Shown here: positions 11,533-33,276 of the stretch, piece after piece
How positions within the stretch are numbered: the stretch's first letter is position 1
Layout of the letters: every line of letters begins with the position of its first letter
Source: Elusimicrobia bacterium RIFCSPLOWO2_02_FULL_39_32
GTDB lineage: Bacteria; Elusimicrobiota; Elusimicrobia; 2-02-FULL-39-32
Length of the DNA stretch: 33,276 nucleotides
Assembly: GCA_001800135.1 (NCBI GenBank)
Contig: MGUU01000003.1
Span: 1 to 33,276 of the forward strand
Direction of reading: 5' to 3'
Notes under the pieces: model-generated
Seen by the model: the letters and a program-made list of their open reading frames with translations, nothing else
What the model was told of the DNA's origin: nothing
Databases searched by the model: none
Made by a program: the position numbers and the translations under genes

Positions 11533-11552
11533 TTTAAATCACCTATATTTTT

Positions 11553-11591
11553 AAATGCCAGACGCTTCTAAAATGCGTCTGGCATTTTTAT
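11553..11591 (+). terminator. intrinsic terminator after the first giant gene
   Basis: A perfect 13-bp stem (11553-11565 pairing with 11575-11587) carries a 9-nt loop and runs into a T-rich stretch, about 20 nt after the stop codon. It separates the giant gene from the signalling genes that follow. Confidence 0.9.
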
Positions 11592-11614
11592 TATGATTCA
11601 TCTTATCCTTAAGT

Positions 11615-11643
11615 TTGAATGGAATATAATTTTTTAGTATTCT
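11615..11643 (+). promoter_or_regulatory. candidate promoter of the receiver-adaptor/kinase operon
   Basis: TTGAAT (11615-11620) is followed after 17 nt by TATTCT (11638-11643). A perfect TATAAT also lies at 11625-11630, without a good -35 box. Either would start transcription within about 15 nt of the ATG at 11652, and no Shine-Dalgarno sequence is visible, so the message may have a very short leader. Confidence 0.4.
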
Positions 11644-11651
11644 AATTCTTT

Positions 11652-13565: not shown

Positions 13566-13578
13566 CTAATATCTATAA

Positions 13579-15066: not shown

Positions 15067-15096
15067 AAAAATCCCTCTACTAAAGAGGGATTTTTA
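15067..15096. terminator. bidirectional terminator between convergent genes
   Basis: A perfect 12-bp stem (AAAAATCCCTCT at 67-78 of this hundred, AGAGGGATTTTT at 84-95) with a 5-nt loop has A and T tracts on both flanks. It can end transcription of the kinase gene on + and of the small membrane-protein operon on -. It touches the stop codon of the - strand gene. Confidence 0.88.
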
Positions 15097-15486
15097 TTTT
15101 TGTCTTTGTTGTCTTTGGATTTCTTGTTGGAGCTGCTGGTTCATGCGGTTTATGCGGTTGATTTCATTAATGGTTTGTATGGTTTGCTGGGTTTGCATGA
15201 TAGATTGCTGGGTATCTTGTTGAATTTGTTTTTGCAACTCCTGCATTTGAGCCATTTGGTTAGCTGTTTTTTCCTGCCTCTCTTGCACATTCTTTAGTCG
15301 GCTCTTTTCATCCTTTTCCACAGCCCCCTTGCTTCTGGACAAAGAAGTTTTATTTTTTAGAAAAGGAATTTTGGAAACAAGATTCTTTAAAGCATCTTTT
15401 TGTGAAAACCAGAGATAAAAAAAACCTATTACAATAACACTGCCTAAACTTAAGACAGCGATTGTAATAGGTTTTTTAAACGACAT
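15094..15486 (-). CDS. small membrane-anchored Gln-rich coiled-coil protein
   Basis: 130 codons. One membrane helix (about 8-27) is followed by a basic stretch. From about residue 60 to the end comes a strongly Gln-rich, coiled-coil-like tail with few hydrophobic residues beyond regular Met, Leu and Ile positions. It starts 8 nt after the stop of the upstream gene and is the last gene of a three-gene leftward operon. No family recognised. The topology suggests a short anchored rod, for instance a scaffold or tether, but that is inference from shape only. Confidence 0.7.
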   Translation of the reverse strand: MSFKKPITIAVLSLGSVIVIGFFYLWFSQKDALKNLVSKIPFLKNKTSLSRSKGAVEKDEKSRLKNVQERQEKTANQMAQMQELQKQIQQDTQQSIMQTQQTIQTINEINRINRMNQQLQQEIQRQQRQK

Positions 15487-16223: not shown

Positions 16224-16643
16224 TTAAACAACCAGATTTTCTTTGGAGGCAGCTTGAAGTTGTTTCTTATCTGAACTTAAGAAATGAATATCTTCCTTTA
16301 ACTCATCCCGCAAAAGGCATGCAGAAGCTAAGTGAACCGCATCCATCCCTCTTAATCTATGTTTGTCTGATAAATGCCCTGCGGAAGCGGCAAGTTCTAA
16401 GGTAACAGGAATTTTAGAAATTTTAATCCAATCTTGTTCAAAAATAGAGAGAGTTTTTTTATAATCGTTTGTTTTTAAGGCGCCCTCTCTCTTTCTTCTG
16501 GATAAAGCAGAATAGAACTCAGGGTAAGTGATGACAGAAGAGAAGATGATCTGTGAATTTCTGACATGTCTTTGAATTAAACCAGAATCTTCTTCCTCAA
16601 AATAGAGTTTTGCAAGGGAGCTGGTGTCTAGATACAAGATCAT
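16224..16643 (-). CDS. PIN-domain toxin of a VapBC-like pair
   Basis: 139 codons, the usual length of the family. The acidic PIN residues are in place: D6 in the LDTSSLAKLY start, E42, D101 in GMDAVHLASA, and D125 in FLSSDKK. Such proteins are Mg-dependent RNases, often acting on tRNA or rRNA. The gene starts 3 nt after the antitoxin stop, so the two are co-transcribed. GGTAG-AAG before the ATG is a modest ribosome site. No terminator is visible before the next - strand promoter, so read-through into the membrane-protein operon is possible. Confidence 0.88.
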   Translation of the reverse strand: MILYLDTSSLAKLYFEEEDSGLIQRHVRNSQIIFSSVITYPEFYSALSRRKREGALKTNDYKKTLSIFEQDWIKISKIPVTLELAASAGHLSDKHRLRGMDAVHLASACLLRDELKEDIHFLSSDKKQLQAASKENLVV

Positions 16644-16646
16644 CTT

Positions 16647-16919
16647 CTACCACACTCTTTCTTCCAAAATCGTTTTAGAAATACGTTCCCCTTTCAGTTT
16701 GATCGGCCGAGACAGACCCACAGGTTTTCCCGAACATCCTAAAATGACGCCTTTTTCTAACAGGCGACCCAATCGAGAATTCACTTGTAAAGTATTAAGA
16801 GGCATGACCACTGCGATTTTTTGTCCCCGATCAGTAATGGTGATGGGCTCTCCATTTCTAACCCTTGTTAAATAACTGCTTAAATGAGCCTTCATTTCTC
16901 TAATGCCAGCCGTGAACAT
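16647..16919 (-). CDS. Phd/YefM-type antitoxin
   Basis: 90 codons. The N-terminus shows the Phd/YefM fold pattern: start with REMKAHLSSYL, then RVRNGEPITITDRGQKIAVVMPL. The C-terminal half (about 45-90) is basic and would wrap and neutralise the PIN toxin encoded 3 nt downstream. AGGAGG lies 5 nt before the ATG. Members of this family repress their own promoter, so the consensus promoter at 17026-17054 is probably autoregulated. Confidence 0.85.
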   Translation of the reverse strand: MFTAGIREMKAHLSSYLTRVRNGEPITITDRGQKIAVVMPLNTLQVNSRLGRLLEKGVILGCSGKPVGLSRPIKLKGERISKTILEERVW

Positions 16920-17054: not shown

Positions 17055-17782
17055 TGGGTTACAATATTTTATAGCTCTTTGGGGGAAGAGACCATCAACT
17101 TATTTTATAAAGAAAGTTTTGTTTACATAGAATTTTTTTTGCTTGGACGCGAATGGAAATAATTTTAAGTTTAAAGTAACAAATTCTAAGTAGTCCTCCA
17201 TATTGAGATGTCTCTCGATGAAAGTTTTTCTTTTAATAATTGGAAGTTCTAATTTTTTCATTTTATTTTATTTATTGGCATTGGTGGTCTTCATTATAAT
17301 TTAATGAGCCTTAGGCTTACAAGTAAACTGATTTAATAAACAAGTAGTGAAAAATTTTTCAGGGTAGGAAAAAGGGAAATGGATGGGAAGGCAGTAAGCC
17401 CAAAGGTAAGAGATATAAAGACTTATGTGATATAATATAGCAAAAGGTTAAGGAAGAAACTAAAAGATAAAATATAATAATATATGGAAATGTGGAATTA
17501 TTTCCATACCTGTGTGGAGTTAGACACATAATTTTTTATAATAAAGAGAATAAATAAACTGTTTGTTGTGGCATTCTTTTTGCTACTAATTAAATAGGAT
17601 ATTTAAGGTTATCCTTAATAATTGGGATTATCTGATTATTTAATAATTTTAGTGATGCTTCGTAAGGATTCATATTGTTTTAAAAGTATAGCGAGGATTT
17701 TGCACTTTTCTTTGTTCAGATATTTGAGGGTTTTCAGATAAATTTAGGATTGACTCTTAGATTAGTGTCCAAATTTGGGGTG
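17055..17782. other. AT-rich intergenic region without a recognisable gene
   Basis: No convincing coding frame on either strand; stops are frequent. It holds an extended -10 box and two hairpins (see the ncRNA candidate) and a small perfect inverted repeat TTAAGG/CCTTAA at 17603-17618. Otherwise I see nothing. Confidence 0.6.
17428..17540 (+). ncRNA. candidate small RNA
   Basis: TGATATAAT at 17428-17436 is a perfect extended -10 box, though no -35 is seen. Downstream, a perfect 9-bp hairpin (TATGGAAAT at 17483-17491 with ATTTCCATA at 17500-17508) is followed by a 5-bp stem (TGTGT/ACACA, 17511-17528) and then a run of six T. Together they would give a transcript of roughly 100 nt. The last stem is weak for a terminator, so this stays a candidate. 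Confidence 0.25.
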
Positions 17783-17870: not shown

Positions 17871-18050
17871 CATGTTCAGTTTATTTTTATTCATGGAGAA
17901 AATTCTAGAGAGAAAAATATTATACCTATTGGCCATTTAATATAATTTATTCAATGTTCCAAATAAAAATTATTGGAGAAAGTTCTAAAGAAAAGATTAT
18001 TGTTCATGTTGGTTGTTTGTTCCAATAGACATAATGATCAAAATAAAAAT
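17871..18050 (+). repeat. imperfect 80-bp tandem repeat in the leader of the second giant gene
   Basis: Segments 17881-17960 and 17961-18040 match at a fixed 80-nt offset. GGAGAA at 17895 recurs at 17975, TTCTA at 17903 at 17983, and AAATAAAAAT at 17961 at 18041. ATG codons fall at 17872, 17954 and 18034 in corresponding places. The first two open frames of 22 and 24 codons; the third opens the giant gene. This looks like duplication of the start-codon neighbourhood. Confidence 0.5.
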
Positions 18051-21000
18051 TAGACGACTTTACAGAAAAACCAAAAGAAACTTCTGGAGGGCATTTTTTT
18101 GTCCGATTCCACACACCTCACCCTTTTCATTTTTAATTTTTAAATTAATCCCCACTAGCCAGTTTTATAAAAAGACAGTTGCTCTCACAACTGTCTTTAT
18201 TTATTTTACTACACAGATTGCGTTTGCGCAGAATGTGATGATGGCCATGCCAAAAAATGCTCTACCAGAACTGTTCCAGAATCTAAAAGTTAAATTCAAT
18301 CTTTATTGGACCGCAGGAAGAATTGTGTTTCATGCCCTGCCCGGATATGACAAATTAAGAGAAGATAGGGACCGCTCCGGCTACATGAGCCCGGAAAGAT
18401 TGATGGAAAGAGAAAAACAGCAATTGGATCGTCTGGAAACACCGCAGCAGTTGATGAAAGACAGAGGCTTACAAATGCCTAAAGGCCAAGAGCAGTATAA
18501 CGGCAAAGAAAAGATGACAGCAGAGCAGTTCTGGCAGAACATGGAGACCATGAAAGGGATTCAAGGGGATATAGCCAGAGTGAGACAGCAATCTAAACAA
18601 GATGTGGCTGCCGGCACAGAAGCGAACTACATACTTTACAATGATGGGAAACAGGTATTTTTTAAAGATGGATTAACGACCAGGGTATTAAATGAGCGGG
18701 TGTTAGATCCCAGAGGAAATTTGACTTTAAGGAATACCTTTCAGATGGGATATAACAACAAGCGTTTAATGACCTCTTACATTGCGGATGAGACTGACTC
18801 ACAAGGGAATATTACGACCACCCGACGTAAAGATATTACCTACACTGATGACTCTGTATATTACGCGGGCAAAGATACTGTGGCGAAGCAACAGATCACA
18901 AGTTTTGAAGAAAATCGCGTAGATCCTTTAGGTAACGCAAGCACGATTATCCGTAAAAACATGAAATATGATGATGATTCTCGAGTAAAACATTTTGAGG
19001 AAGATCAGATAGATACCTTTGGCAATAAGAGCAATAAGACTTGGACCAATGCCAATTATGACAGCAATGATAACTTAATGAACTATGATGAAAATACAAT
19101 AGATTCTTTTGGCAATAAAACCTCTAAACATTGGGGAGATGCAAAGTATATTATGAATCCTCAATGGACTGGGGATTCAGATCGGGTGCATCAAAAATAT
19201 TTGCTTGCAGAATATACACAAACCGTTGTGGATGCGTCTGGGGCAAAAAGCGTGGAGAAGTGGGGCGAAGCCCAATACAATCAATATAATGAGCTGGTAT
19301 ATCATAAAACAATTCGCACGGATTTCTTAGGCTTTAAAACAGTTACGGAATTTTCTGATGGACAGTACAACCAATATGGGCAAATGACCAACTTTAAACA
19401 GCAAACTTTAGACGCGCATGGGAATTTTCAGCTTATGGAAAGAAATGGCATTACCTATACAAAGCTTGGGGATACTCTTTCCTATAATGAGATTGTTTCT
19501 GATGATAAAGGTAAAAGAATAGAGAGAACAAGAACTAATATAGTTTATAACGATAAGCGTTTGCAGATTGGTTATTTTGAATTAGAAACTTTGCCGGATC
19601 TAACCCAAGTGGGCAAAACATGGTCTGTTGCTGAAAAAGAAGGGGAGAAAATAAAAGGATATAAGGAAGTCAAGGGCAAAGCCGGATATTTTAAACAAGA
19701 AGCCTTGTCTGTTCCATCTCTTATTCAGACACAAATTATTAAAGATTGGTCTGCTTATGGAAAAAACGAAGGTTATAATGAGCGAGGCCAACTCATAGGG
19801 TACAGAGAAATTAGTGGTATTTACAGAAATGGTATTAAGGAAGGAGAAAGAGATATTGAAGTTAAAAAATATGTTTCTGATATTACTTATGATAAGTCAG
19901 GTAAACAATCCGGATCTATAGAGGACACTTTCACTCTTGGCAAAAATGAGAATGGAAAAAACATTGATGGCCGTTTACTTATTTCTACCGCAAGATTATC
20001 TACAGAAGAAGATATTGAAGGCAAGATCATTGGTTATAAAGAGCGTGTGGATACAAAAGGCTGGGATGGGGAAGGGAGTTTAAAGCGAGACCTATCAGTA
20101 GAAAAAGTTAGGGACAGCATTACTTTAACTAGCTATAACGAGACTGTGCATACCTTTTCTCAAGATGGGGATGATAAATTAGATACTACTAGTTACACGG
20201 AAAGAAAAGATATGGTCCTAGATGGGTTTGCCCGTTTAGTTTCTTATAAGGAAGATTTTTTTTCCGAACATGGAAACGAAGATTCAAAAGTTTCAAGAGA
20301 GGTTTCCACCATCCATTACGATTTGCGGAATTTGATGGTGGGCTCTTACGAGGTGAGCAAAGATATCAGAGGCGCGCTCACCACCACCTTCCTTTCCAAC
20401 AGCCTCTATAACGCTTTGAGCCAGTCGATCTCATTCTTGAGGCAAACAATCCAAGAAGGGAAATCGGGCGCCTCTGCGGTCGAGCTTTTTAGGTCGAAGA
20501 TCACCTATAACGGGCTAGGGGATATGATGAGCTACACCGATCATTCGAGGAAGTTCGATAAAGATTTCAAAAATCAGCTTTCGAACAAGGTAGATGTGAT
20601 TGATTGGAATGCGCTTGGCTACAACCGTTTTGGTCAGCTCACCGGCTATGTGCAAGGATTCGTAGAGAACGGATTAAATATTGAGATGAAAGTAACTAGC
20701 ATCAAATATGATTCTTTCGGCAGAACCACGGAGCAGTTGACCACCAATCATAAAACGGGAACGGAAACGCGCGTCTCTTATACTTTGGGAGACGGCACTG
20801 TTTTGTCTCCAATGGATCTTTCGATGTTATTGGAAGAGAACGGCCTTAAAAGTTGGGATCAGCTCTTGAAAGATGGAGTAGATGGAAATATCTATCAAAC
20901 CATCAGCCTCTCTGAGTTTATGAAAATGCTGGAGTCCAATGAGGCGAAAGGAAAAGATCTGGAAGCCTTGATGAATGAAGGGTTGTTGAAGTTCAGCGTT

Positions 21001-24000
21001 GAAGGGAATCTTGTCACCTACGCCAGATTGCGAGAAAATATCGTTGCCAGACTTTCCGACGAAGAGAAAGCGGCGAATGCGGAGAATTTAGCTCAAATCA
21101 TAAAGGAAAAGATCATCAGAGAAATCCAAAATCAAACATTAAAGGTACAGGTTCGCCAGCTCTTAAGGAAGGTAACTCAATTTGCGCCGGTGGATGTTAC
21201 GGATCGAACAATCCGCACCGGATCGAAATATTATGAGAAGGGCATCAACTACGGTTTGATGAAGGAGTACACCGACACCGCCTTCAACCTCGTTTTGGGC
21301 GGAGAATCGGTTGATGATGACACCATGCAGATGCTATTGGATAAGGCGGAAAGAATGTTTGCGGACGCGAGAGATGACCCCAGCGCGGAAAAAGAAAATT
21401 TGAATATCGAGTTCTATTTGATCAAGGCGCTTTCCCATTATGCCTTAAAACTTGAGGCGGACGGAAAGAAAATAGACGATATCCTTCTCTTCCAAAATTC
21501 CGTTAAGCAGATGGATTATAACGATTTAGGCCGGGCGACCGGTTATATCAATGTGCAGGGCTATTCCTTAAATATCAAGAGCGATTACATGATGGATGGG
21601 CATAAACTGAGCTGGGATGAATTGAAAGCGTTTGTGGGGAACGACGGCTCAAAAATTTGGAAGCTCCTCAAAGATGGCACGCTCACTCGCGTTTCTAAAT
21701 TGGCGGCGAATACTGAGAGCTCAATTTCGATTCGTTCGAATGTTGGATACAATGAGTTGGGAAGCATTCAAGGTTATGACGAGAAATCTACCGACGAAAA
21801 GGGGGGGGTCCTATCGCTCATCGTCCATACGGAACTCACCTATAACGAGCTAGAGCAGGTTTTGACCACCTTTACGAAAACTTCTATCTCCCGTGTGAAA
21901 GGAGGGTATGAAGAGAGCTATCTTTTGACCAGCAACCAATATAATAAAGAAAATAATCAATTGATCGGAGCTGTCGCGGCCACCCCCAAAGATAAAAGGA
22001 ATTTCACGCGGGATTTAGTCTGGACGAATGTGGATGAGAACGGGGAAGGGGGCGAGTTGGTGGAATCGATCAGCGAGTCGGGCAGTAGTGTGATGTCTTT
22101 TTTTACCGCGATCAACGGTATGACAAAGCTTTTGGCTCAGAGCGTCTATTCAGAAACGAGATTAAAGAAGGGAGATTTCAGCTCCTCCAATCAAAATATG
22201 TTCTATGAATATGATCCAGTCACCGGAAGGCTTCTCAATGCGAGCGGAATCACATTCTCCTCTTCACAAGGAGCATACCTCACGGAAGATGGCACCGCGT
22301 TGGTTCCGGTTCTCTCCACAACGATTTCAAGAAGCGTTTTTTCTACTTACGGGAGCCAAACCAAGTTGGTGATAAGCATTAGCGACAGTGATTCAAGAGG
22401 CGCAGATACCAGCCAGACCAAGCAGACGATGGTGACTGTCAATGAGTATAAAGATAACGGCAGGTTGGAGGATTCATGGGGCCGCGGCAGCTCCATCTCC
22501 CACGGCAGTTTTAAAAAAGATATGGATGGAAATCTAATAAGAGATGAATGGGGGATGCCTATTCCAAACGACATGACGGTTGGAACCATGATTCAGGAAT
22601 TTATGGTGATCAACGATGAGGCTCTATTGGAATCTCAAGGGACGAAGTCCACCCAGCTCTATTATAATGACGCGACCGGCGAGTGGGTGCCAGAACTCAA
22701 TGGAAACAGCTACTCAACCCAAAACATGCAGATCTATATTTATGATTCTGTAGGGCGTTTAAAAGGCGTGCAAGGGGGGATGGGAGCCGAAACCGGCATT
22801 ATAGCGAGAGGATTCACTCAAGGTGAGATCGCTTTAAAAGAGATCAATAAGGCTTTAAAATTAGGGCGGCCTCAAGACTTAGCTGTGCTTGAGGCTCTCA
22901 ACATGACTTTGGAAGAGCTGGAGGAACTGAAAGATGACGAGGCGGAAGAAAAAATCCTCACCGCCTTCAATTCGATTCTTGCCCTGCCAGAATTTTATGA
23001 GTCTGTTGATGTAGAGGCTCTGGGGCTTACGGATGATATGAAATCGCGATTGGATCGGATCAAAAATCTGGTGGTCAAAGGGAAAGAGGAGAGGGGGAAG
23101 GTTAAAAATCTTTTTGGAAGCGAGGATCTAAAAACTTTAAGGATTTTCAATAAGGCTCTGCTGCAAGCGCTCTATGCGGATGCAATGAAAGAGAGCCTCG
23201 TTGCGAAGTTGGTTTCGGGAACATTCACCGGCACAAGCGAAGGGGGCGGAAGATCGAGCGGTCTCATCTTTAACAAGTTCATGGTTATTATGGGCCAGGC
23301 GATGATGATCAACTCATACACGCTCTCAGATCAAAAAGAGCAGTGGACCAAAGAGATCACATTCACAAAACCTGTACCGCCGGTTTCAGCGCCGCCAGCT
23401 TTGGTGGAGACGATTGAGCCAGTGTCTCCTCCCTCCGGCGCCGAAGCGCCTCAATCTCCAGAGGCAACTCCTGAAACTGTTCCACAATCGGCGGCGGTTG
23501 CGGAAAGCGCCGGCAAAGTTTCTGATATGGCAAGAGCGATCACAGGCGGTCCCGTGGTCTCTCCTTTGCCTAAGATTTCGGAGGAAGAAGTTGCCAAAAG
23601 CAAAGCGGCTGTGGCTCCCAAAATAATTCCTTTATCCGAAGAACAGCTTTCTCAAGCGCCGCAGCCTGAGCCTTCTCTTGAACCTGCTTCAGAAATGCCT
23701 CAAGAAGCTCCCGCTCCAGATTTATCGGCCCAAGGTCCCATGCCCGCGGAGACCACCCCAACTTCCCCTCCGTCGGCACCCTCCCTTGAGCCTCAAATTC
23801 AAAAACAGACGATTCGCTTTAGGGATGATAACCAAGTGGTCGGAGCTTCCTTAATTGTAAATAACAACGCTTACTTGATCGGATATGATTCTAATACGGA
23901 CAGTTTAATCGTTTACCGAAAGGACCAAAACAATCAGTGGGAGCAGGTGGGTAAAGCGGAAGTTATTTATGGAGACGATACTACCTCTCTTTATCTTGTG

Positions 24001-27000
24001 ACCGGAGAGGGAACGGATCAAACGAGAGAGATGCTTGCGGAGTATGACGCCAGAACTAATACCTTGAGCAACTCAAGTGAGCGAACAGAGATGTGGAATT
24101 TTTCCGATGAGAAAACTGGGCAGGGGGTTCAGTATCAGGAGATGACGGTTTCATATAAGTTCAACGCTTTAGGATTGATGATGGCGGCTCATGGGATCGG
24201 TTTTACTCAAGCGGATGACGGCTTTAGAAACATCACCAACAGCCTCATTGAGCAAAAGTACGACATCATCATGGGGCAGGCGAAGATGCGGGTTTCGGAG
24301 ACTAAATCCTTCACTCAAAATCTCGACGGCACTTGGAGCGCCATGGGCTGGATTATCAATGGGCAAAAAAATGGACTTCCCGTTGGCAAACCGATGACTG
24401 TGGAGTATGATTACAATAAGGATGGGGAAATGATCGGCGCCAGAGGGTACGGCGAATCGGTAACCGCTAATAGCGATGCCTCCATCACATTCAGCACTAT
24501 CGAGCAGGATTATGAAATCTTGGATGGTCAAGCAAAACTCACCCACACCAAAACAACTTCCGACACCAGCTCCAACGATACCGAGACAACCCAAGTCATC
24601 CACGTTTATTACAGCTACGATAATCGTTTGCGTCTCGTTAAAAGAGGCGGCGTTTATGGCGGAAAAAAAGATAAGAGCGGAAAATGGATCCGCTCCACAT
24701 TTGGAGAGGGGACAACCTCTTCGATCCAAAGGGACAAAAACGGCATCATCACCAACATTTCTAAAGGAAAGATTTTTCAAACATACGACATCTTTTTTAA
24801 CCAGGCTAAACTGATCGAGTCTGTAACTGTCAATGATGGTTGGTTGGAAGGGGCTGAGACGTGGAGCCAAAAACAGAGCACCTTAAAATATATTTATGAT
24901 AAGTCGGGCAGGATTGCCGGCGCCAATGGATTCGAACGGGAACTCAAAGGAGACCTGTTCCTTAAAAAAGATGTCACCGAAACACTCACCTACCAAACCT
25001 ACGAAATCATCCAAGGCCAAGCCAAAGTCACCAACTATAAATCTATTTCAAGAGCTCGTCATTTTATAACTCTTGCAGGAAAAAACGATCTAGATATAAG
25101 AGAGATGGTGATCAATAGCGCCATCATTGGGGAGATGCTCGATCAATTCAGGCGCGACGATTTTAAAGATAATCCCGATGTGGTCTATAGCAGAACCGAA
25201 AGTTCAGGCGGCAATAGCTATGATTCTTATGGGAATCTAGTTGGAGTCACCGGTATCACAGATTCTAACACCATCAATGCGGCCACCGGCGAGCCTTCGA
25301 GAAGCGTGGATGAGCAGATCTTCATGATGTTTGACTATTCGTTCGAGAAAGATGGAATCAAGGTGCTGGGCAGGCAATCTAAAATGGTGGGCACCAAGAA
25401 CATCTCGCGGACCGGAGAGGATATTACGGTGTTGAGCAGGGCCCAGGCGGAAGGGTTGATGGCGAAGATTGCCGATGCTCTGGGGCTTTCTCAGCTTGAA
25501 ATAAAAGATCAAACCGCATTGGTTAATTTAGCGGTAGCCCTGACCAAATCGAACGAGCCCATTTCACAGCTGATCGAAAAAAGCAAGCTCTCCGCAAAAG
25601 ATTTCTTCTCGACGGTGCTTTTCATACTGGATGAGGCTGGAGCCACACTCAACGCTCTACAGCTCGACATGTTTGAAGCGATGTTTCAAGTGGTGGGGGA
25701 GGCATTAAAAACTGTTTTATTCAGATTCACTTCGCTGTTGATTGGCGGCGAAGAATCGGAGATGACTCAAACGGTGCAGTCTGTTTTTAACGATCTTAAA
25801 GAGAATTTCAGTACTCTAAAAGATCCAACCGATCTAACGAGTTTCGTCTTGAATGGAGTCTATGTTATCGATACCCTAGAAGGGGCGCAGTTGCCCGAAG
25901 GCGTGGAGACCAAAAAAATGCTTTGGTGGACGGCCGATGGCAAGCTTGTGATCCATAGAGATGTATTAAATGAGTGGGCAAGGCTTGAAAGGGAAGATAC
26001 AAACGAACCCAAAAAATTTACGGTTCGGGGCGCCCTGCAAAAGATGATGCTCCAGGAAAATTATGAATACTCCCACGCCAAGGCGAAGTGGGATGAAGGC
26101 GAAATCGCATCTGCTCAAGATTTGAAAGGATGGAGCATGCATGCGGAAACAGAAAAAGAAAAAGGCGGGTTGGGTTATACTGTTCCCGGCATCATTGGAA
26201 ATTATGGGGCGCCTACGATTTCGGCAGGAGGCAAAACACCTGGCGCCTCTTCTCTATATGGAACGGATAACTGGAGCGCGCTCTTGAAAGCGCTTAGCAA
26301 TGTGAAGGTAGTGAGGATGAATGCCGATGGCACATATGTAAGAGATGAGAGCGATAATCTTGTTGAAGATCCGATCAATACCGAGATTGCGATCGAGGGA
26401 GTGACAGATACGTTATTGCAAGGGGAGAATGCGGGCATTGTTACAAATGTGGATATGGATAGGGCTGCGGTGAAGGTGGGAGCTTTCGCATCCGATGTGG
26501 ATGGCAGCTGGAAGCTGGAATGGAGTGAATCAACTCAAAAGTTTTCTTTTGTGAGGCGGGATGCGGCAGGGACTGTGGCAGAAAGTTTTCTATTTGAAGA
26601 TCAAGATCCGTTGATCAGCGGTTATATTGTGAAAGATGGAGTTGCTGTTCCAACTTTCGGCGAAGAGCTTCCTCCAACTTGGACAGAGGAGCAGAAAGAG
26701 GCTCGGAAAAACGATAAAGATTTCTTTAAGAGCGAGTTTAGAGTGGGCGATAATGTGATGGGGCGCTATATCCGCTATGGAAGCGGAAAGAATGTGCGAA
26801 TCATGATTATTCTTTATAGGGAGGATGGCAACCTTAAAGCCCGCTACAACAAAGATTCAAGTTCGATCTCTTTCGATATCAAAGGGCCAGAAATAGTAAA
26901 AACTGGCGGCGGAACATGGGTTTATGCCGATGGCGATGATAGAGGGACGCCGGTGGATGTGGACGCCAGCATTTCGGATCCTGACGGCGATATGAGGAGC

Positions 27001-30000
27001 GAGTATAATGGCAGAGCTGTGGAATTTAGAAGGGATACCGCCTTCGACTTTATGAAGTATAGCTTTGCCGCCAACACCGACAAATTTAGTCAGGACTATT
27101 TTGTTGGCAACGCCCCGCCCCTTGGTTTTGCAACGGCGCTTGCGGGTAAAGCCGTCTTTGACCAAGCGGCGATTGATGCCTATACCGAGGCCTATAAGCT
27201 AGCTAATAGTGGAGCTGATTATAAAGATAGCCAAGAATATAAGGATATTCTTGCGGCGAACGAAAATAATGCGGCGACTGCAACTAAAATATTCCATGAG
27301 AATCATCAGCTTTTGACCTCGCTCGATTTGGCTGAGATGAAGCCGAAGTACCAAGAGGATCCCCATTACAAAAAGCTGGATGTTTCAAATAAATCGGAAT
27401 ATTTTAGGCAGAACGCAATCTTTAAAGTTGGGGATACCAGCCGCTATGCGGTGCTGGGTTACAGTCTATTGATGCAGATTAAGAAAGTGGATGCGCCCAT
27501 CAATGTAAATGGTTCGGTGGAGAAAAAAGATCTGATCGCTAAAGAGACCGTCAACCGGGGATTCCGCGATCCCGCCCGTGAAGCTTTAAGTTGGAGAATC
27601 AACAAACTATCCATCTCTTTCAAAGGGCCCGCTGGCGAAACGCTTGTGGGGATTGATGGGTTTAAGAATTTTATTCTTAAGTTTCAAGAAGCTGAGAACG
27701 TAGAAGCATCTAAACGAATTGATGTCACAAAGGATCTTTTTTATGATCGGGTTGAAGAAAAGTTCACAGATAATCCTCAGAGCGGCGAAGGGGATAAGGT
27801 AAGAGCAAATATCCGTGTCAACAATGATTTTCTGCAATACTTTGTAACTACCAAGAAATTTTTAAATCCCATCACCATGAAGTTGACCGATTCTCCCTAC
27901 AGGCATCCGTCGAGCGGCAAAAGAGATGATTGGGGAGAGGATTCAAGCTCCTATCAAACGGAGGAAGATACTGACAGCAATGGAGTTAAGGAGAAGTTTG
28001 ACAATCTGGTCAATCTGCGGCTTGTTGAAATGGAAATTTTTAGCCGCAACTACAACTCTGAAGATGGGTTTGGCGCAGCCACCAATGCTCCCTTCCGCGC
28101 TCCATCAGCGGCGAACCTCAACCGGATTTATCAGGATGCGACTCATATTTATGAAAAGATTATCGGCTCCTATAGCGGCGCAAAATATTATTTTAACTCT
28201 ACCACCAAGACATTTACCACGAAACCATATAGAACCTCCGCTGGCGTGGACACTGACAATGCAACCGAAGGAACGACTAACAATATCGCCAATGATGGGC
28301 CCTTTAAGTTGGTGGAAGTGCCAGATAAAAAACCTACCGCCAATGCGGATGTCCTTTGGTTCTACAATTCTAAAAAAGAGGATTACACTCAGTCCCCATT
28401 CAGATTTACTGAAGATTATACCTTCGAACAAGATCTGTATGACAATTCTACTCCGCCGACAAAATTATATAGCGCAGGGCAAACCGTTCACGCAGGGGAT
28501 GATACGATGTTGAGTTCCTTTGTTAAGAATGGAAGAACGGTCTTTAACACCCCTAACGAAGGGGTCGCAAACTTTAATCCTGTCACGGGCGAAATTACTG
28601 TGCGGGGATTTAGAGGCAATGGAAATGCGGGGGAAGGGAATTCCAGCGCTCAGGAGTGGAGCCAGCTCTTTCACAATCCAAAAGATATCATAGATTCTTC
28701 TCAAACGGATCCAGCGAAAAGATTTCAGCAAACCGACTATAAATTTACCTATCTGAATGAAAAAGGAAAATACGCTTATACCGATAAACAGATGCGCATC
28801 AGGCTGGATAAAACGGAAGGCGACCCGCCCGTTACTACAACTACTTTTGAGTTTAAGGATCTCAGTGACTTCACAAAACAGGATGGCAGTGCGGATCTTT
28901 ATACGGATAAAGAGGGCAATATTTGGAGGAAGGCTGGCAATGAGTTCTCTTTTGTCAGCGATAAAGAGGGTGGAACCGGCGGTAAATATACTGGGGCCAA
29001 GTGGGAGATGAACGAGAGTCTGGAAGCCTATGAGCATATCGAAAATATCAAGAATGTGGAGAACAAGGCTTTAGACGCCAAAACTTTAGGAGCGATCAAA
29101 GATAATACTCAAGTGGTGAGCGCAAGCAAGCTCCACAGGATCGGCCTCGGGGATAATGTGGGCGTCATTACCCGTTTTGACACCAATAAATTTATGGAAA
29201 ACGGAAACTGGAAAACAAGTTTTGGCATGTTCTCCAAAGATATGGCGCAGGCCGATTCGTTATTTAGAGTCTTCACTGGTTTTAAGAAAAATGAGCAGGG
29301 GAATATGGAGAGGGTGATCATGGTGACCGCCGGCTCCTCGGATGATCCGATTAAGGCGACCATCAAATGGAACCGTGAGGGCAACTCTTTCTCCTATGAA
29401 CAGGATAAGGATAATAAATTTATACAAGAGTGGAATCCTGCCGGCGCTCCGGCGAACACATTGGTTTTAAAAGACAAAGTGACCGGCAACGAGGTGGCGC
29501 GCTTTACGTTTGAGTTGGGCGGGCCGCGGGGCAAGCTGGTCACAATTAAGAAAAACGGGGAGATTTTTGCCCGAATTGCTGGTAACGGCGACTTTATTTC
29601 CAAGGATGGGAACTTGTATACAGAAGAAAAATCCGGCTTTAAGCGTGGCGATTCAAGCGCCAGCGTCTCTTCGCTTTTTGGCGTGGTAGATTTTTCAAAA
29701 TTCTTCAGTCCTGTATTCGATATCGGGGCAGAAAAAGCAAGGTCGTTTGTCAGCTCTCTATTCAAAGCGCTTTCTCCTAAGAAACTTTTCCAGGAGCTCG
29801 AAACAAAGTTTGAAGTGATGCCTGTGGGGGAGATGAAGGTAGTCACGCCTCCTGCCGCTCTGCAGGGGCCCGAAGCGCTTTTAGCCTACCTAGCCAACAC
29901 TCCCGCTTTAGAAGGGATAGACTTAAGCAATGTAAAACTCACTCAGCTCGCTGACGGGAAGGTAGATATCTCTATTAAGGAAGGCAATACCACAGCCAAA

Positions 30001-33000
30001 GGAACGATTTCCAAACCTAAAGAGGAAACAGCTGCGGATGGATCGAGAAAGCTGACATGGAGCCTCAATGTGGAGCGGGGAGAAGAAAAGGTCTCCGGCT
30101 TTGGTTCAAGTTCTTATCAGGAGATGTACACTACCTATGAGTATGACAGCAAAGGATTTTTGATTGGAGCAAAAGGGAAAGGGTGGTATAAAAATGATGA
30201 CGGCTTTGGCAATATCACCACAGGAAACATCACACAAACCTATGTGATCATCAAAAACCAGGCGAAGATTAAAACTTCCGAATCCACAAGCTACTCTGTG
30301 AATGTGGATGGGAGCCAGAGCTGGCAGGATGGCTCAACCCGGTTTGGAGCGCGCACTCAGGCAAGCGTGGTCACTTATGATTATAACGCCAACGGCCTTC
30401 TTCAAGGAACCGGCGCTACTGCATCGAAGGGAACTTCTGTTACTGATGATGGTTTCGGCAACTGGACCAAAACAGATATTTTTCAAACCTATACACTCGT
30501 CAACAATCAAGCAAAACTTAAATCGTCCCGCTCTGTTTCCGATACTTCAAATCTGGATCTTTCCACTTCCCATCAGGATTTGACGGTTACCTATAGCTAC
30601 TATGGAGAAAGAGATGAGGATGGGAGGGTGAAGTTCCCTGCGAGTGAGGAGCTCGACCACCGTGTTGGGCAGATGGCGGATGCCCACGGAGTTGGATCTA
30701 CAAGCTCCAATGACGGTTTCGGAAATACGAGCGAAGGGGAGCTGATTCAAGGCTACTCCATTATCCGCGGCCAGGCGAAACTTTTGACCTCTACCACGAA
30801 GAGCCGCTCCACAAATGCGGATGGCTCAAGAAGCTGGCAAGATGGCTCTGTGCAAAATGAGATCCAAACTCGCGCGATGACTGTCACTTATCGCTATGAT
30901 GAGAACGGCCACTTAAGAGATGACGGCGCTGTGATCGAGGAGGGGAACGAAGGGATTTCCGTTAGCAACGATGGCTTTGACAACTGGACCACGAGCATCA
31001 TCAAGCAGGAGTTTTCGATCCTCAACGGTCAGGCGAAGATGAAGGATTCGATCACACGCTCTTTCACAAGAAATGTGGATGGATCTTGGAGCGTGATGGG
31101 CTGGGGCTGGGAAGATTTTGCAAGCCTTGGAATCAACACCGGCAATTATGGAACCAAGGCGGGCTGGCAGGGCGGCAATGCGATGCGGCTCTCCTATTAT
31201 TATTATGGCCAGGACAGGGAAGATTCTGAAACGAGAAACTATAAATCCAGAGTGGATCGAAACGCCAAGCGCTATAAAGGAACTACCGCCTACGCGGAAG
31301 GGAGCGGAAGTTCGATTTCGAACGACGGCTTTGGAAATAAGAGTTTCGCGGATATCCGGCAGGTTTTTGAGATATATAAGGGGCAAGCCAAAATATTGAC
31401 CAACGAAACCAAAAGCCGCTCAGAAAATATTGATGGATCAAAGAGCTGGCAAGATAGGAGCGTTCGAAATGGGGTCACGACTGTCAGTAATATAGTCACC
31501 TACATTTATAATGCCAACGGCGTTTTAATTGGAGATGGAGCTAGCGCTAACACAGGAATTCTGATGAGTGATGATGGCACCGGCAACTGGACTAAGAGCA
31601 CCATTAGCCAAAAATATGTTTTGGTGAACGGCCAGGCGAAAGTGAAGAGCTCACGCAACATCGCAGAAAGCGCCACAGTGGGAACGAAAAATGCCGATGA
31701 GTCCACCTCCTATCAAGATACCACCGTTGTTTACAGCTACTATGGAGAAAAAGATGCGAATGGGAATGTGATCGCTGATTTGAGGACGACTTCGGACCAT
31801 CTCCTTGGGCAGACGGCAAAAGTGGAAGGGAAGGGCACCACCCGCTCCAATGACGGTTTCGACAACTGGACCGCGGGCACGCTGGAACAGAAATTTGAGA
31901 TCATCCGCGGCCAGGCAAAAATTACGATGAGCCGAACAAAGAGCTGGTCGAGCGGCTCCGCGGGGGCTGGCGCGTGGGAATATCAAAATGGAAGTTGGAC
32001 ATTCAATGCGGAAGCGAGTGGGGGCAGCTATCAAAATCCAGTTGCCAATAGCGACGGCTCTTGGAACAAACAGGATGTGACGGTTTACTTCGCCTACGAC
32101 GCGAACGGGAGTATCGTGCTTGAGGGGGGGCTCTTTGGAGGCAAAGAGATCAAAGATAATGAAGGGCAGGTGATCAATCGGTTGACGACAGGAGAGGGCG
32201 TTACTCGCTCTGACGACGGTTTTGGAAATATTAGCGCGGGGACCATCCTTCAGAATTATCGAATCGTCAAAGGGCAGGCGAAACTTGCGAGCACCAAGAA
32301 CATTGTTGAGGCGGCAAAGATCAAGCTCGACCCCAGTGGACGTGTGGTTCGGGATGCGGATGGGGAAGCGGTTTTAGAAGATGCGCGGGGCAATATTGAC
32401 GGCTCCACTAGTTTTCAAGAGATGTGGACGAAATATGATTATGAGGAGTCCACAGGAAAACAGACAGGACAGAGCGGCAAAGGAACCTCTCTTTCGAACG
32501 ATGGTTTTGGCAACTATACCGCAGGGACGATCGAACAGGAATATTCTTTGGAAGGGAGAGAAAATCAGGGGCAAAGCTGGAAAATTTTAAAAACGACGAA
32601 CCGAAGCTGGAGCTCGACCGCGAGTGGAGCTGGAGCCTATGAAGTGTTGAATGGTTCGACTTGGAGATTTACAGCAAGCTCGGACGGTGGAAGTTATGAT
32701 GATCCTGCCGCCGCAAGCGATGGAACCTGGTCCAAACAGAAGATGGAGACCCTCTATCGTTATATTTCTAATGGAAAACAGAAGGGGCAGTTTGGAGTGG
32801 GGAGCTCACTTTCGAATGACGGCTTTGAAAACTATACAAGAGGGGCGGTTCTGCAGGAGTTTGGACTAAAGGGGAGCGCATCTGGAGGAAAACAGTTTAA
32901 AGCTCTCAATTCAAAGAGCCTCAGTTGGACGAGCAACTCAAGTGAAGCGAATTTGGAAATTCCTCTTGCCGTTTGGGATGCGGCAAAGAATGGAGGTTTA

Positions 33001-33276
33001 GGAAGTTACTCATTTGATAGTGTTATGACCAGCTCTATTTGGAGTTTAACCGCTCCGGCGCTTAACTCCAACAGCGACTCAAGCTGGAACAAGCAGACGA
33101 TGGAGACGGTGTATGAGTATGGTGCGAATGGGAGGCAGAGCGGGCAGTATGGGGTAGGGGATACATTCAGTGACGATGGATTTGGGAATTACACAAAGGG
33201 GAAGGTAGTGCAGAGATTTGCGCGAGAGTGGGAGGGGAAGGTATGGACTAGTTTTAAGCTGGTGAGTTCAAAGAGT
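18034..33276 (+). CDS. second giant repeat-rich exported protein, 3' end outside the window
   Basis: I read the frame line by line: 5081 codons from ATG 18034 to the window edge without a stop, so the protein is longer still. N-terminus: basic stretch, then a hydrophobic segment ending TTQIAFA-Q (cleavage after about residue 65), similar to the signal of the first giant protein (FTT…FAQ). Residues 310-502 hold 30-residue repeats with a Y-D…L…D-x-x-G-N pattern, a relaxed relative of RHS/YD repeats. Motifs such as YDSVGRLKG recur further on. A helical region lies near 1600-1770 and a Pro/Ala/Glu-rich linker at about 1779-1925. A unit with DDGF and GQAK begins at 2061, and unassigned sequence fills about 2500-4000. 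From 4055 to the edge there is an array of DGFGN/GQAK units. No enzyme domain was recognised. Probably a giant cell-surface fibre or adhesin; function unproven. Codon use changes sharply near residue 769. Confidence 0.88.
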   Translation, partial: MIKIKIRRLYRKTKRNFWRAFFCPIPHTSPFSFLIFKLIPTSQFYKKTVALTTVFIYFTTQIAFAQNVMMAMPKNALPELFQNLKVKFNLYWTAGRIVFHALPGYDKLREDRDRSGYMSPERLMEREKQQLDRLETPQQLMKDRGLQMPKGQEQYNGKEKMTAEQFWQNMETMKGIQGDIARVRQQSKQDVAAGTEANYILYNDGKQVFFKDGLTTRVLNERVLDPRGNLTLRNTFQMGYNNKRLMTSYIADETDSQGNITTTRRKDITYTDDSVYYAGKDTVAKQQITSFEENRVDPLGNASTIIRKNMKYDDDSRVKHFEEDQIDTFGNKSNKTWTNANYDSNDNLMNYDENTIDSFGNKTSKHWGDAKYIMNPQWTGDSDRVHQKYLLAEYTQTVVDASGAKSVEKWGEAQYNQYNELVYHKTIRTDFLGFKTVTEFSDGQYNQYGQMTNFKQQTLDAHGNFQLMERNGITYTKLGDTLSYNEIVSDDKGKRIERTRTNIVYNDKRLQIGYFELETLPDLTQVGKTWSVAEKEGEKIKGYKEVKGKAGYFKQEALSVPSLIQTQIIKDWSAYGKNEGYNERGQLIGYREISGIYRNGIKEGERDIEVKKYVSDITYDKSGKQSGSIEDTFTLGKNENGKNIDGRLLISTARLSTEEDIEGKIIGYKERVDTKGWDGEGSLKRDLSVEKVRDSITLTSYNETVHTFSQDGDDKLDTTSYTERKDMVLDGFARLVSYKEDFFSEHGNEDSKVSREVSTIHYDLRNLMVGSYEVSKDIRGALTTTFLSNSLYNALSQSISFLRQTIQEGKSGASAVELFRSKITYNGLGDMMSYTDHSRKFDKDFKNQLSNKVDVIDWNALGYNRFGQLTGYVQGFVENGLNIEMKVTSIKYDSFGRTTEQLTTNHKTGTETRVSYTLGDGTVLSPMDLSMLLEENGLKSWDQLLKDGVDGNIYQTISLSEFMKMLESNEAKGKDLEALMNEGLLKFSVEGNLVTYARLRENIVARLSDEEKAANAENLAQIIKEKIIREIQNQTLKVQVRQLLRKVTQFAPVDVTDRTIRTGSKYYEKGINYGLMKEYTDTAFNLVLGGESVDDDTMQMLLDKAERMFADARDDPSAEKENLNIEFYLIKALSHYALKLEADGKKIDDILLFQNSVKQMDYNDLGRATGYINVQGYSLNIKSDYMMDGHKLSWDELKAFVGNDGSKIWKLLKDGTLTRVSKLAANTESSISIRSNVGYNELGSIQGYDEKSTDEKGGVLSLIVHTELTYNELEQVLTTFTKTSISRVKGGYEESYLLTSNQYNKENNQLIGAVAATPKDKRNFTRDLVWTNVDENGEGGELVESISESGSSVMSFFTAINGMTKLLAQSVYSETRLKKGDFSSSNQNMFYEYDPVTGRLLNASGITFSSSQGAYLTEDGTALVPVLSTTISRSVFSTYGSQTKLVISISDSDSRGADTSQTKQTMVTVNEYKDNGRLEDSWGRGSSISHGSFKKDMDGNLIRDEWGMPIPNDMTVGTMIQEFMVINDEALLESQGTKSTQLYYNDATGEWVPELNGNSYSTQNMQIYIYDSVGRLKGVQGGMGAETGIIARGFTQGEIALKEINKALKLGRPQDLAVLEALNMTLEELEELKDDEAEEKILTAFNSILALPEFYESVDVEALGLTDDMKSRLDRIKNLVVKGKEERGKVKNLFGSEDLKTLRIFNKALLQALYADAMKESLVAKLVSGTFTGTSEGGGRSSGLIFNKFMVIMGQAMMINSYTLSDQKEQWTKEITFTKPVPPVSAPPALVETIEPVSPPSGAEAPQSPEATPETVPQSAAVAESAGKVSDMARAITGGPVVSPLPKISEEEVAKSKAAVAPKIIPLSEEQLSQAPQPEPSLEPASEMPQEAPAPDLSAQGPMPAETTPTSPPSAPSLEPQIQKQTIRFRDDNQVVGASLIVNNNAYLIGYDSNTDSLIVYRKDQNNQWEQVGKAEVIYGDDTTSLYLVTGEGTDQTREMLAEYDARTNTLSNSSERTEMWNFSDEKTGQGVQYQEMTVSYKFNALGLMMAAHGIGFTQADDGFRNITNSLIEQKYDIIMGQAKMRVSETKSFTQNLDGTWSAMGWIINGQKNGLPVGKPMTVEYDYNKDGEMIGARGYGESVTANSDASITFSTIEQDYEILDGQAKLTHTKTTSDTSSNDTETTQVIHVYYSYDNRLRLVKRGGVYGGKKDKSGKWIRSTFGEGTTSSIQRDKNGIITNISKGKIFQTYDIFFNQAKLIESVTVNDGWLEGAETWSQKQSTLKYIYDKSGRIAGANGFERELKGDLFLKKDVTETLTYQTYEIIQGQAKVTNYKSISRARHFITLAGKNDLDIREMVINSAIIGEMLDQFRRDDFKDNPDVVYSRTESSGGNSYDSYGNLVGVTGITDSNTINAATGEPSRSVDEQIFMMFDYSFEKDGIKVLGRQSKMVGTKNISRTGEDITVLSRAQAEGLMAKIADALGLSQLEIKDQTALVNLAVALTKSNEPISQLIEKSKLSAKDFFSTVLFILDEAGATLNALQLDMFEAMFQVVGEALKTVLFRFTSLLIGGEESEMTQTVQSVFNDLKENFSTLKDPTDLTSFVLNGVYVIDTLEGAQLPEGVETKKMLWWTADGKLVIHRDVLNEWARLEREDTNEPKKFTVRGALQKMMLQENYEYSHAKAKWDEGEIASAQDLKGWSMHAETEKEKGGLGYTVPGIIGNYGAPTISAGGKTPGASSLYGTDNWSALLKALSNVKVVRMNADGTYVRDESDNLVEDPINTEIAIEGVTDTLLQGENAGIVTNVDMDRAAVKVGAFASDVDGSWKLEWSESTQKFSFVRRDAAGTVAESFLFEDQDPLISGYIVKDGVAVPTFGEELPPTWTEEQKEARKNDKDFFKSEFRVGDNVMGRYIRYGSGKNVRIMIILYREDGNLKARYNKDSSSISFDIKGPEIVKTGGGTWVYADGDDRGTPVDVDASISDPDGDMRSEYNGRAVEFRRDTAFDFMKYSFAANTDKFSQDYFVGNAPPLGFATALAGKAVFDQAAIDAYTEAYKLANSGADYKDSQEYKDILAANENNAATATKIFHENHQLLTSLDLAEMKPKYQEDPHYKKLDVSNKSEYFRQNAIFKVGDTSRYAVLGYSLLMQIKKVDAPINVNGSVEKKDLIAKETVNRGFRDPAREALSWRINKLSISFKGPAGETLVGIDGFKNFILKFQEAENVEASKRIDVTKDLFYDRVEEKFTDNPQSGEGDKVRANIRVNNDFLQYFVTTKKFLNPITMKLTDSPYRHPSSGKRDDWGEDSSSYQTEEDTDSNGVKEKFDNLVNLRLVEMEIFSRNYNSEDGFGAATNAPFRAPSAANLNRIYQDATHIYEKIIGSYSGAKYYFNSTTKTFTTKPYRTSAGVDTDNATEGTTNNIANDGPFKLVEVPDKKPTANADVLWFYNSKKEDYTQSPFRFTEDYTFEQDLYDNSTPPTKLYSAGQTVHAGDDTMLSSFVKNGRTVFNTPNEGVANFNPVTGEITVRGFRGNGNAGEGNSSAQEWSQLFHNPKDIIDSSQTDPAKRFQQTDYKFTYLNEKGKYAYTDKQMRIRLDKTEGDPPVTTTTFEFKDLSDFTKQDGSADLYTDKEGNIWRKAGNEFSFVSDKEGGTGGKYTGAKWEMNESLEAYEHIENIKNVENKALDAKTLGAIKDNTQVVSASKLHRIGLGDNVGVITRFDTNKFMENGNWKTSFGMFSKDMAQADSLFRVFTGFKKNEQGNMERVIMVTAGSSDDPIKATIKWNREGNSFSYEQDKDNKFIQEWNPAGAPANTLVLKDKVTGNEVARFTFELGGPRGKLVTIKKNGEIFARIAGNGDFISKDGNLYTEEKSGFKRGDSSASVSSLFGVVDFSKFFSPVFDIGAEKARSFVSSLFKALSPKKLFQELETKFEVMPVGEMKVVTPPAALQGPEALLAYLANTPALEGIDLSNVKLTQLADGKVDISIKEGNTTAKGTISKPKEETAADGSRKLTWSLNVERGEEKVSGFGSSSYQEMYTTYEYDSKGFLIGAKGKGWYKNDDGFGNITTGNITQTYVIIKNQAKIKTSESTSYSVNVDGSQSWQDGSTRFGARTQASVVTYDYNANGLLQGTGATASKGTSVTDDGFGNWTKTDIFQTYTLVNNQAKLKSSRSVSDTSNLDLSTSHQDLTVTYSYYGERDEDGRVKFPASEELDHRVGQMADAHGVGSTSSNDGFGNTSEGELIQGYSIIRGQAKLLTSTTKSRSTNADGSRSWQDGSVQNEIQTRAMTVTYRYDENGHLRDDGAVIEEGNEGISVSNDGFDNWTTSIIKQEFSILNGQAKMKDSITRSFTRNVDGSWSVMGWGWEDFASLGINTGNYGTKAGWQGGNAMRLSYYYYGQDREDSETRNYKSRVDRNAKRYKGTTAYAEGSGSSISNDGFGNKSFADIRQVFEIYKGQAKILTNETKSRSENIDGSKSWQDRSVRNGVTTVSNIVTYIYNANGVLIGDGASANTGILMSDDGTGNWTKSTISQKYVLVNGQAKVKSSRNIAESATVGTKNADESTSYQDTTVVYSYYGEKDANGNVIADLRTTSDHLLGQTAKVEGKGTTRSNDGFDNWTAGTLEQKFEIIRGQAKITMSRTKSWSSGSAGAGAWEYQNGSWTFNAEASGGSYQNPVANSDGSWNKQDVTVYFAYDANGSIVLEGGLFGGKEIKDNEGQVINRLTTGEGVTRSDDGFGNISAGTILQNYRIVKGQAKLASTKNIVEAAKIKLDPSGRVVRDADGEAVLEDARGNIDGSTSFQEMWTKYDYEESTGKQTGQSGKGTSLSNDGFGNYTAGTIEQEYSLEGRENQGQSWKILKTTNRSWSSTASGAGAYEVLNGSTWRFTASSDGGSYDDPAAASDGTWSKQKMETLYRYISNGKQKGQFGVGSSLSNDGFENYTRGAVLQEFGLKGSASGGKQFKALNSKSLSWTSNSSEANLEIPLAVWDAAKNGGLGSYSFDSVMTSSIWSLTAPALNSNSDSSWNKQTMETVYEYGANGRQSGQYGVGDTFSDDGFGNYTKGKVVQRFAREWEGKVWTSFKLVSSKS
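18086..18143 (+). other. orphan ribosome site and alternative start of the second giant gene
   Basis: GGAGG at 18086-18090 lies 8 nt before TTG at 18099, better placed than anything before ATG 18034. The TTG frame stops after 14 codons at 18141-18143. Removing one base from the T-run 18137-18141 would join it to the giant frame just before the signal peptide, giving a signal of ordinary length (about 44 residues). So the true start may be 18099 with a single-base error or slippage in this run. Confidence 0.35.
18961..19539 (+). repeat. 30-residue (90-bp) tandem repeats near the N-terminus of the second giant protein
   Basis: Units of exactly 30 residues start at 18961, 19051, 19270, 19360 and 19450; the unit at 19141 is enlarged to 43. 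Shared pattern: aromatic Y at position 3, often D or N at 4, L, M or V at 9-10, F or Y at 11-12, D near 18, G at 21, often N next. DNA identity is low, so the array is old. The spacing of Y-D and D-x-x-G-N resembles YD repeats, but the unit is longer. Confidence 0.75.
23368..23808 (+). repeat. Pro/Ala/Glu/Ser-rich low-complexity linker
   Basis: About 147 residues of the second giant protein rich in P, A, E, S and V with PxP and EPS motifs, followed by a beta-rich block. It divides the protein into an N-terminal part and the part holding the DGFGN/GQAK units, much as Pro-rich linkers divide the first giant protein. Confidence 0.7.
30196..33276 (+). repeat. array of DGFGN/GQAK surface repeats, cut by the window edge
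   Basis: The motif (S/D)-(N/D)-D-G-F-x-N starts at 30196, 30445, 30709, 30967, 31321, 31570 (DGTGN), 31849, 32212, 32497, 32815 and 33172. In most units it is followed by x-I-x-Q-x-(Y/F) and GQAK, then S-x-T-(K)-S and a variable beta-rich part ending YxYxxNGxLxG. Spacing is 249 to 363 nt. A related isolated unit starts at 24214, and eroded ones occur near 22580, 24490, 24730 and 24970. The array is still running at the edge. Confidence 0.85.

What the first reader, a model, noticed from the sequence alone, without database searches (positions are those of the whole stretch)
18034..33276. Second giant ORF of at least 5081 codons, still open at the window edge
A continuous frame with no stop was followed for 15.2 kb. 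It carries an export signal and several repeat systems but no domain I recognise. Giant exported ORFs are reported from Omnitrophota; this one may belong to an undescribed surface-protein family.
Basis: partly seen in the sequence, partly recalled or inferred. Interest (0 to 1): 0.85.

Follow-up and report, generated by a model that had tools for sequence, protein, structure and literature searches.

The report
Bacterial gene encoding 24,000-residue exported protein
The open reading frame is the first fifth of one gene, about 24,100 codons long, in an uncultured bacterium of the phylum Elusimicrobiota; it encodes an apparently exported protein with about 90 copies of a repeat related to Rhs/YD repeats and a tail with a helicase-like ATPase and two possible metal-enzyme sites, which fits a giant contact or delivery protein.

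Summary
Confirmed: the frame is open from ATG 18034 to 33276 (5,081 codons), but 33276 is the physical end of the contig. The gene continues on contig C20, which opens with an 18,984-codon frame of the same repeats. Duplicated ends (87 and 97 identical bases) imply a 110-base gap that keeps the frame: about 24,102 codons, 2.6 MDa. A sister species carries the same gene, broken in the same repeat tract; both ends are under purifying selection (dN/dS 0.09 and 0.18).

The organism is an elusimicrobiote, not an omnitrophote. About 90 copies of an ~88-residue unit are related to Rhs/YD repeats: the window's copies miss Pfam's cut-off, but homologous giants pass it. The tail carries an SF2-helicase-like ATPase, a JAMM-like HxH..(S/T)xxD motif and an HExxH motif. 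The ATPase slot is not alignable between sister species, though both keep ATPase motifs. The protein has 6 cysteines in 24,065 residues.

Best reading: an exported Rhs-like contact/delivery protein with a fast-evolving enzymatic tail. Giant genes in this phylum are already known; I found no report of this architecture or of the swapped ATPase slot. Function is inferred, not shown.

The parts
18034..33276 (+). 5' part (5,081 codons) of the giant ORF; continues on contig C20 of the same genome (C20:2-56953, stop TAA at 56954; loci L011-L013)
   Evidence: No stop in frame; continuation and junction
18034..18228 (+). Putative extended Sec signal peptide, residues 1-65 (charged n-region, hydrophobic TVALTTVFIYFTTQ, cleavage motif AFA|Q)
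   Evidence: Read from the translation; similar in G001, G003, G020, G032 homologues
18355..19623 (+). Conserved N-domain (residues ~108-530) made of YN..G / D..GN repeats of ~45 residues
   Evidence: N-terminal 700 residues matched in 17 of 60 related genomes, in ORFs up to 18,143 codons; dN/dS 0.087 over residues 1-530 against G001
24217..24921 (+). First block of the ~88-residue unit (residues 2062-2296, three copies above 19 bits)
   Evidence: Unit profile scan
30199..33276 (+). Start of the main repeat tract (units from residue 4056 on; the tract runs to joined residue ~13,898)
   Evidence: Unit profile scan, 85 units above 10 bits in the whole protein
33190..33276 (+). Last 87 bases, identical to C20:824-910: the repeat at which the assembly broke
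   Evidence: Exact-match comparison of the contig ends

Best explanation
This is the 5' fifth of one intact gene for a ~24,102-residue (2.6 MDa) exported protein of an elusimicrobiote. The chain leaves the cytoplasm through Sec by an N-terminal signal peptide. Some 10,000 residues of nearly continuous YD/Rhs-related repeats (joined residues ~4,020-13,900), preceded by sparser repeats, form a long beta-rich shaft or shell. Hydrophobic segments anchor the ~10,200-residue tail or insert it into a membrane. The tail holds an SF2-helicase-like ATPase, a JAMM-like site and an HExxH site and is proposed to act in or on a neighbouring cell, as the tails of Rhs/polymorphic toxins do. Shown by computation: the open frame, the in-frame junction, conservation with purifying selection at both ends, repeat relationship through intermediates, and the ATPase motifs. 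Inferred: export by Sec, the shaft or shell, delivery to another cell, and any enzymatic activity. My confidence is about 0.9 for 'one real giant gene with YD-related repeats' and about 0.4 for the delivery mechanism; the figure below is for the whole statement.
For: Junction with a 110-base gap that keeps the frame; same gene with the same layout in the sister species G001, 5' part on C5 and 17,466-codon 3' part on C22, followed by the same genes; a 15,714-codon relative on one contig in G003. dN/dS 0.087 (N-terminal 530 residues) and 0.18 (C-terminal ~1,000). RHS_repeat above Pfam cut-off in the homologous giants G003 (43 bits) and G020 (34.3 bits); the window's unit model finds 49 and 115 units in those, none in shuffled sequence. 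ATPase motifs TGGGKS, ADEADV, GGSATMD, TNESGLRG, QALGRAGR conserved; the model of a relative matches almost only SF2 helicases. HxH..T..D and HExxH invariant among divergent giants. 6 cysteines in 24,065 residues, none in the last ~11,250, against 0.43% in neighbouring ORFs, as expected of a chain that is exported whole. The ATPase slot is replaced between sister species whose N-domains are 84% identical, the kind of divergence seen in tails of polymorphic toxins.
Against: The window's own repeats do not reach the RHS_repeat cut-off and no giant of the family shows the Rhs core motif DPxGL at the end of the repeats. The repeat model is of low confidence and has no significant fold match. The far C-terminus is conserved (58%), not variable as in a classical polymorphic toxin. 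An ATPase has no ATP outside a cell, so the tail might stay in the producer. No immunity gene or secretion apparatus was tied to the locus. Low cysteine can also reflect composition.
Confidence: 0.45

Rival explanations
1. Surface coat or adhesin: the repeats form a fibre or coat that holds the cell to a surface, a prey or a host, and the tail stays at or in the producer as an anchor with its ATPase in the cytoplasm. Nothing is delivered.
For: Hydrophobic segments on both sides of the ATPase module allow it to lie in the cytoplasm, where ATP is available. Omnitrophota giants are proposed to be coats or adhesins (PMC10066038). Long beta-rich repeats suit a fibre.
Against: Cysteine is absent from the tail as well, the ATPase module included. 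The rapid replacement of the ATPase slot is unusual for an anchor. No known adhesin domain was found.
Confidence: 0.3
2. Self-processed polyprotein: the giant chain is cut by its own C-terminal metalloprotease-like sites into several mature proteins.
For: Two candidate metal-enzyme motifs close to the C-terminus, conserved among divergent giants, and long proline-rich linkers in the chain.
Against: No cleavage sites are known; neither motif region reaches a protease family above cut-off. G020 keeps the HxH motif but has no HExxH.
Confidence: 0.15
3. Assembly artefact or decaying gene: C3 and C20 are not adjacent, or the frame is open by chance or low complexity.
For: The join crosses a repeat that the assembler did not resolve; the G001 copy has a frameshift at C5:4268 within the repeats.
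Against: The implied gap is in frame, G001 has the same layout, G003 has a 15,714-codon relative on one contig, dN/dS is low at both ends, and the other frames are full of stops.
Confidence: 0.06

Closest known systems
Rhs / YD-repeat proteins (Pfam PF05593; e.g. the beta-cocoon Rhs effector Tse15, PMC11461821)
   Same: Tyr-Asp/Gly-rich hairpin repeats, related through homologous giants that pass the Pfam cut-off; different enzymatic modules after the repeats
   Different: Unit of ~88 instead of ~20-40 residues, ~90 copies, total length ~24,100 residues, no DPxGL core motif, a tail of ~10,200 residues instead of a short toxin, an ATPase in the tail
Giant ORFs of Omnitrophota (e.g. 39,678 residues in Velamenicoccus archaeovorus, PMC10066038)
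   Same: Giant exported chains with few recognisable domains and several transmembrane segments; L032, an Omnitrophota record, carries the ATPase module in a 3,260-codon open frame
   Different: Another phylum; here a repeat family and a tail architecture can be named. Homology to the V. archaeovorus protein was not tested
Huge proteins of Elusimicrobiota (>5,000 residues, PMC11573180)
   Same: Same phylum and size class; reported there as enriched and without assigned function
   Different: That survey gives counts and clusters; this family's repeats, ATPase slot and metal-site motifs are not described in the passages read
SF2 helicases / SecA ATPase
   Same: Walker A, DExD, motif III-like, V and VI signatures in order; the same genome has a genuine SecA_DEAD domain inside another giant ORF (G000:C25)
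   Different: No significant match to SecA by hhalign nor above cut-off to Pfam Helicase_C (best E 0.0018); embedded in an apparently exported protein

Membership tests
Rhs/YD-repeat family (PF05593) | RHS_repeat profile above the curated cut-off in the protein itself | tested here: not met
   Best E 0.0124 (18.2 bits, cut-off 22) in the giant ORF; no hit in slices
Rhs/YD-repeat family (PF05593) | RHS_repeat above cut-off in homologues that share the N-domain and the unit | tested here: met
   G003 43 bits, G020 34.3 bits; shared units and N-domain
Rhs/YD-repeat family (PF05593) | Core motif DPxGL at the end of the shell | tested here: not met
   Absent from the giant ORF and from the G003 and G020 relatives
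Rhs/YD-repeat family (PF05593) | Spiral beta shell structure | tested here: inconclusive
   All-beta model, mean pLDDT 55, no significant fold match
Rhs/polymorphic toxin | Variable C-terminal toxin with a neighbouring immunity gene | tested here: inconclusive
   The ATPase slot is replaced between sister species, but the far C-terminus is conserved (58%) and RND-type genes follow the giant gene in both genomes; immunity was not tested
SF2 helicase-like ATPase | Ordered motifs I, II, III, V, VI and RecA-like fold | tested here: met
   Motifs in the alignment; Foldseek top matches almost all SF2 helicases, best E 1.1e-3, probability up to 1.0, on a relative's model of mean pLDDT 54, best in the second lobe
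SecA | Significant profile similarity to SecA | tested here: not met
   hhalign probability 1.3%, only the Walker A stretch aligned
JAMM/JAB metalloprotease | HxH...(S/T)xxD motif and family profile | tested here: inconclusive
   Motif invariant in five giants; no Pfam or PDB profile match
Zincin (HExxH) metallopeptidase | HExxH with a third ligand and family profile | tested here: inconclusive
   HExxH plus downstream E invariant in three giants; DUF6782 metallopeptidase below cut-off (E 0.0013, 18.5 vs 27 bits)
Omnitrophota giant ORFs | Source organism in Omnitrophota | tested here: not met
   Same-family genome G005 corresponds to JACPSV01, 'Elusimicrobia bacterium'

The most novel reading that the evidence does not exclude
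A self-contained delivery machine: a Rhs-related giant that carries its own exchangeable SF2-type motor, which pulls or unfolds the tail (or captured proteins) across a target membrane, with the motor replaced rapidly between species.
Probability: 0.1. Interest if true: 0.9.

Novelty: new variant of a known kind. Interest (0 to 1): 0.62.

Why it matters
Giant genes of Elusimicrobiota and Omnitrophota have been counted but not explained. Here one of them gets a repeat family (YD/Rhs-related), a comparable architecture in a relative on a single contig, evidence of selection, and a concrete oddity: an ATPase module embedded in an apparently exported protein and replaced between sister species. 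That turns an unknown giant ORF into testable questions about fold, location and target.

Tried and rejected
Pfam and NCBIfam slices: nothing above cut-off in the giant ORF. PADLOC on four pieces: nothing. Unit profile against PDB sequences: nothing. A home-made 14-sequence YD profile was too weak to decide. SecA membership by hhalign: not significant, so the module is called SF2-like only. Fold search with the repeat model: no significant match, model of pLDDT 55. First genome-contig scan with a single sequence found nothing; the alignment query worked. Overlapping repeat windows gave an unusable alignment. Omnitrophota as source: rejected on kinship. Chance or artefact as explanation of the open frame: rejected.

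Full report
Observation. The frame 18034-33276 is open for 5,081 codons. The other five frames of the stretch hold 135-377 stops and are never open for more than 240 codons. The window is one whole contig (C3), so the frame is cut by the contig end.

Extension. The last 207 bases match contig C20 of the same genome at 97%. C20 opens with an 18,984-codon frame in the same orientation, ending in a TAA. The last 87 bases of C3 equal C20:824-910, and the first 97 bases of C20 equal C20:1021-1117. If both belong to a second copy of that segment, 110 bases are missing, and this length keeps the frame: 5,081 + 37 + 18,984 = 24,102 codons. The 24,065 known residues weigh 2.64 MDa. The sister species G001 has the 5' part on C5 and a 17,466-codon 3' part on C22, again broken in the repeats (with one frameshift at C5:4268), and the 3' part is followed by two RND-type transporter genes as in G000. 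A same-family genome, G003, has a 15,714-codon relative on one contig. The join of the two contigs remains an inference, but a strong one.

Is it a real gene? Between G000 and G001 the first 530 residues are 84% identical with dN/dS 0.087; the last ~1,000 are 58% identical with dN/dS 0.18; the repeats are about 46% identical with saturated dS. These are Nei-Gojobori estimates with high dS, so the ratios are rough.

Organism. The source is therefore an elusimicrobiote, not an omnitrophote.

Anatomy (joined residue numbers unless stated). Putative signal peptide 1-65. N-domain of YN..G / D..GN repeats about 108-530; the N-terminal 700 residues match in 17 of 60 related genomes. First unit block 2062-2343. 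Main tract about 4,020-13,900; 95 units above 0 bits and 85 above 10 bits in all. Hydrophobic segments near 13,960-14,450, 17,510-17,780 and 20,100-20,180. ATPase module at C20-ORF residues 13,780-14,440. HTHPDSPMPTARD at C20-ORF residue 18,364 and HEEVH at 18,721.

Repeats. The unit consensus is DGFGNxTxGxIxQxY...GQAK...DGSWSxQ...YxY...G...GxGxSxSN. Pfam RHS_repeat is below cut-off in the window's protein but above it in giants that share the N-domain: 43 bits in G003 and 34.3 bits in G020. The window's unit model finds 49 and 115 units in those two and none in shuffled sequence. I take this as a relationship to YD/Rhs repeats through intermediates, not as membership: the protein's own score and the DPxGL core motif were tested and not met. 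The unit occurs in 16 of 231 genomes of the class and 11 of 237 of the phylum of L032, an Omnitrophota record. AlphaFold2 on four units gives an all-beta model of low confidence without a significant fold match.

ATPase. The module aligns with four other sequences from giant ORFs, with motifs I, II, III-like, V and VI; in the class it is found in 9 of 235 genomes, nearly always in long open frames. The model of a relative (L026) matches almost only SF2 helicases (best E 1.1e-3); its mean pLDDT is 54, with the second lobe best. Similarity to SecA was tested and is not significant. In G001 the same place holds a sequence with VGGGKT, LDEVHL, GLSGT and RQAFGRVDRG that phmmer cannot align with the G000 module, although the N-domains are 84% identical. 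By eye G003 has a third, degenerate version. So an ATPase-like module keeps its place while its sequence is replaced; whether by exchange or by very fast divergence is open.

Metal-site motifs. HxH with a downstream T..D is invariant in five divergent giants, and HExxH with a downstream E in three. Pfam and PDB profiles do not support the first; DUF6782, a putative metallopeptidase family, is below cut-off at the second. Activity is not shown.

Location. There are six cysteines in 24,065 residues and none after joined residue 12,810, against 0.43% in neighbouring ORFs. This suggests that the whole chain, ATPase included, leaves the cytoplasm. The ATPase would then find ATP only in another cell. 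That, with the replaced ATPase slot, is the main reason to prefer delivery over a static coat; it is an inference, and the coat/adhesin reading stays close behind.

Known context. Elusimicrobiota are reported as enriched in proteins above 5,000 residues, without assigned function (PMC11573180). Omnitrophota giants reach 39,678 residues and are proposed to be coats or adhesins (PMC10066038). PMC12057145 cites a preprint with proteins up to 85,800 residues and names Elusimicrobia among the lineages where giant genes are common; the preprint is not held here. A search for YD repeats together with Elusimicrobia found no paper.

Verdict. A real, conserved giant gene of a known kind, with an architecture that I could not find described; the mechanism is plausible and unproven.

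Noticed in passing
220-11532 +: First giant ORF, 3,770 codons, signal-like N-terminus and several hydrophobic segments, no Pfam family above cut-off. It is of another type: no unit repeats; similar N-termini occur in other giants (G003:C8 next to the giant gene; G000:C25).
   Followed up: partly
L072:2997-16295 - (G000:C25): A 4,433-codon ORF with an N-terminus like the first giant ORF contains a genuine SecA_DEAD domain (E 5e-63), also in the sister species (G001:C42, 5,255 codons). A SecA copy inside a giant, signal-bearing protein is odd in itself.
   Followed up: partly
11652-13565 +: One ORF joins a response-regulator receiver domain to an HlyD-type membrane-fusion domain, followed by a histidine kinase gene at 13579-15045.
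   Followed up: no
16224-16919 -: PIN-domain toxin and Phd/YefM antitoxin genes (both above Pfam cut-off): a type II toxin-antitoxin pair upstream of the giant gene.
   Followed up: yes
15094-15486 -: Small coiled-coil protein with a sub-threshold match to UPF0242 (E 1.9e-5).
   Followed up: no
L013:18460-L014:5393 (G000:C20, downstream of the giant gene): Two consecutive AcrB/RND-type transporter genes follow the giant gene in G000 and in G001. A link to the giant protein is not shown.
   Followed up: partly
L049:2939-L051:17367 (G020:C10): An 18,143-codon relative with one cysteine; it lacks HExxH but ends with FHTH...PTPEDV, like the JAMM-like site.
   Followed up: partly
L084 (G003:C29): A 3,812-codon ORF with many RHS repeats above the Pfam cut-off: an ordinary YD-repeat protein in the same family of bacteria.
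   Followed up: no
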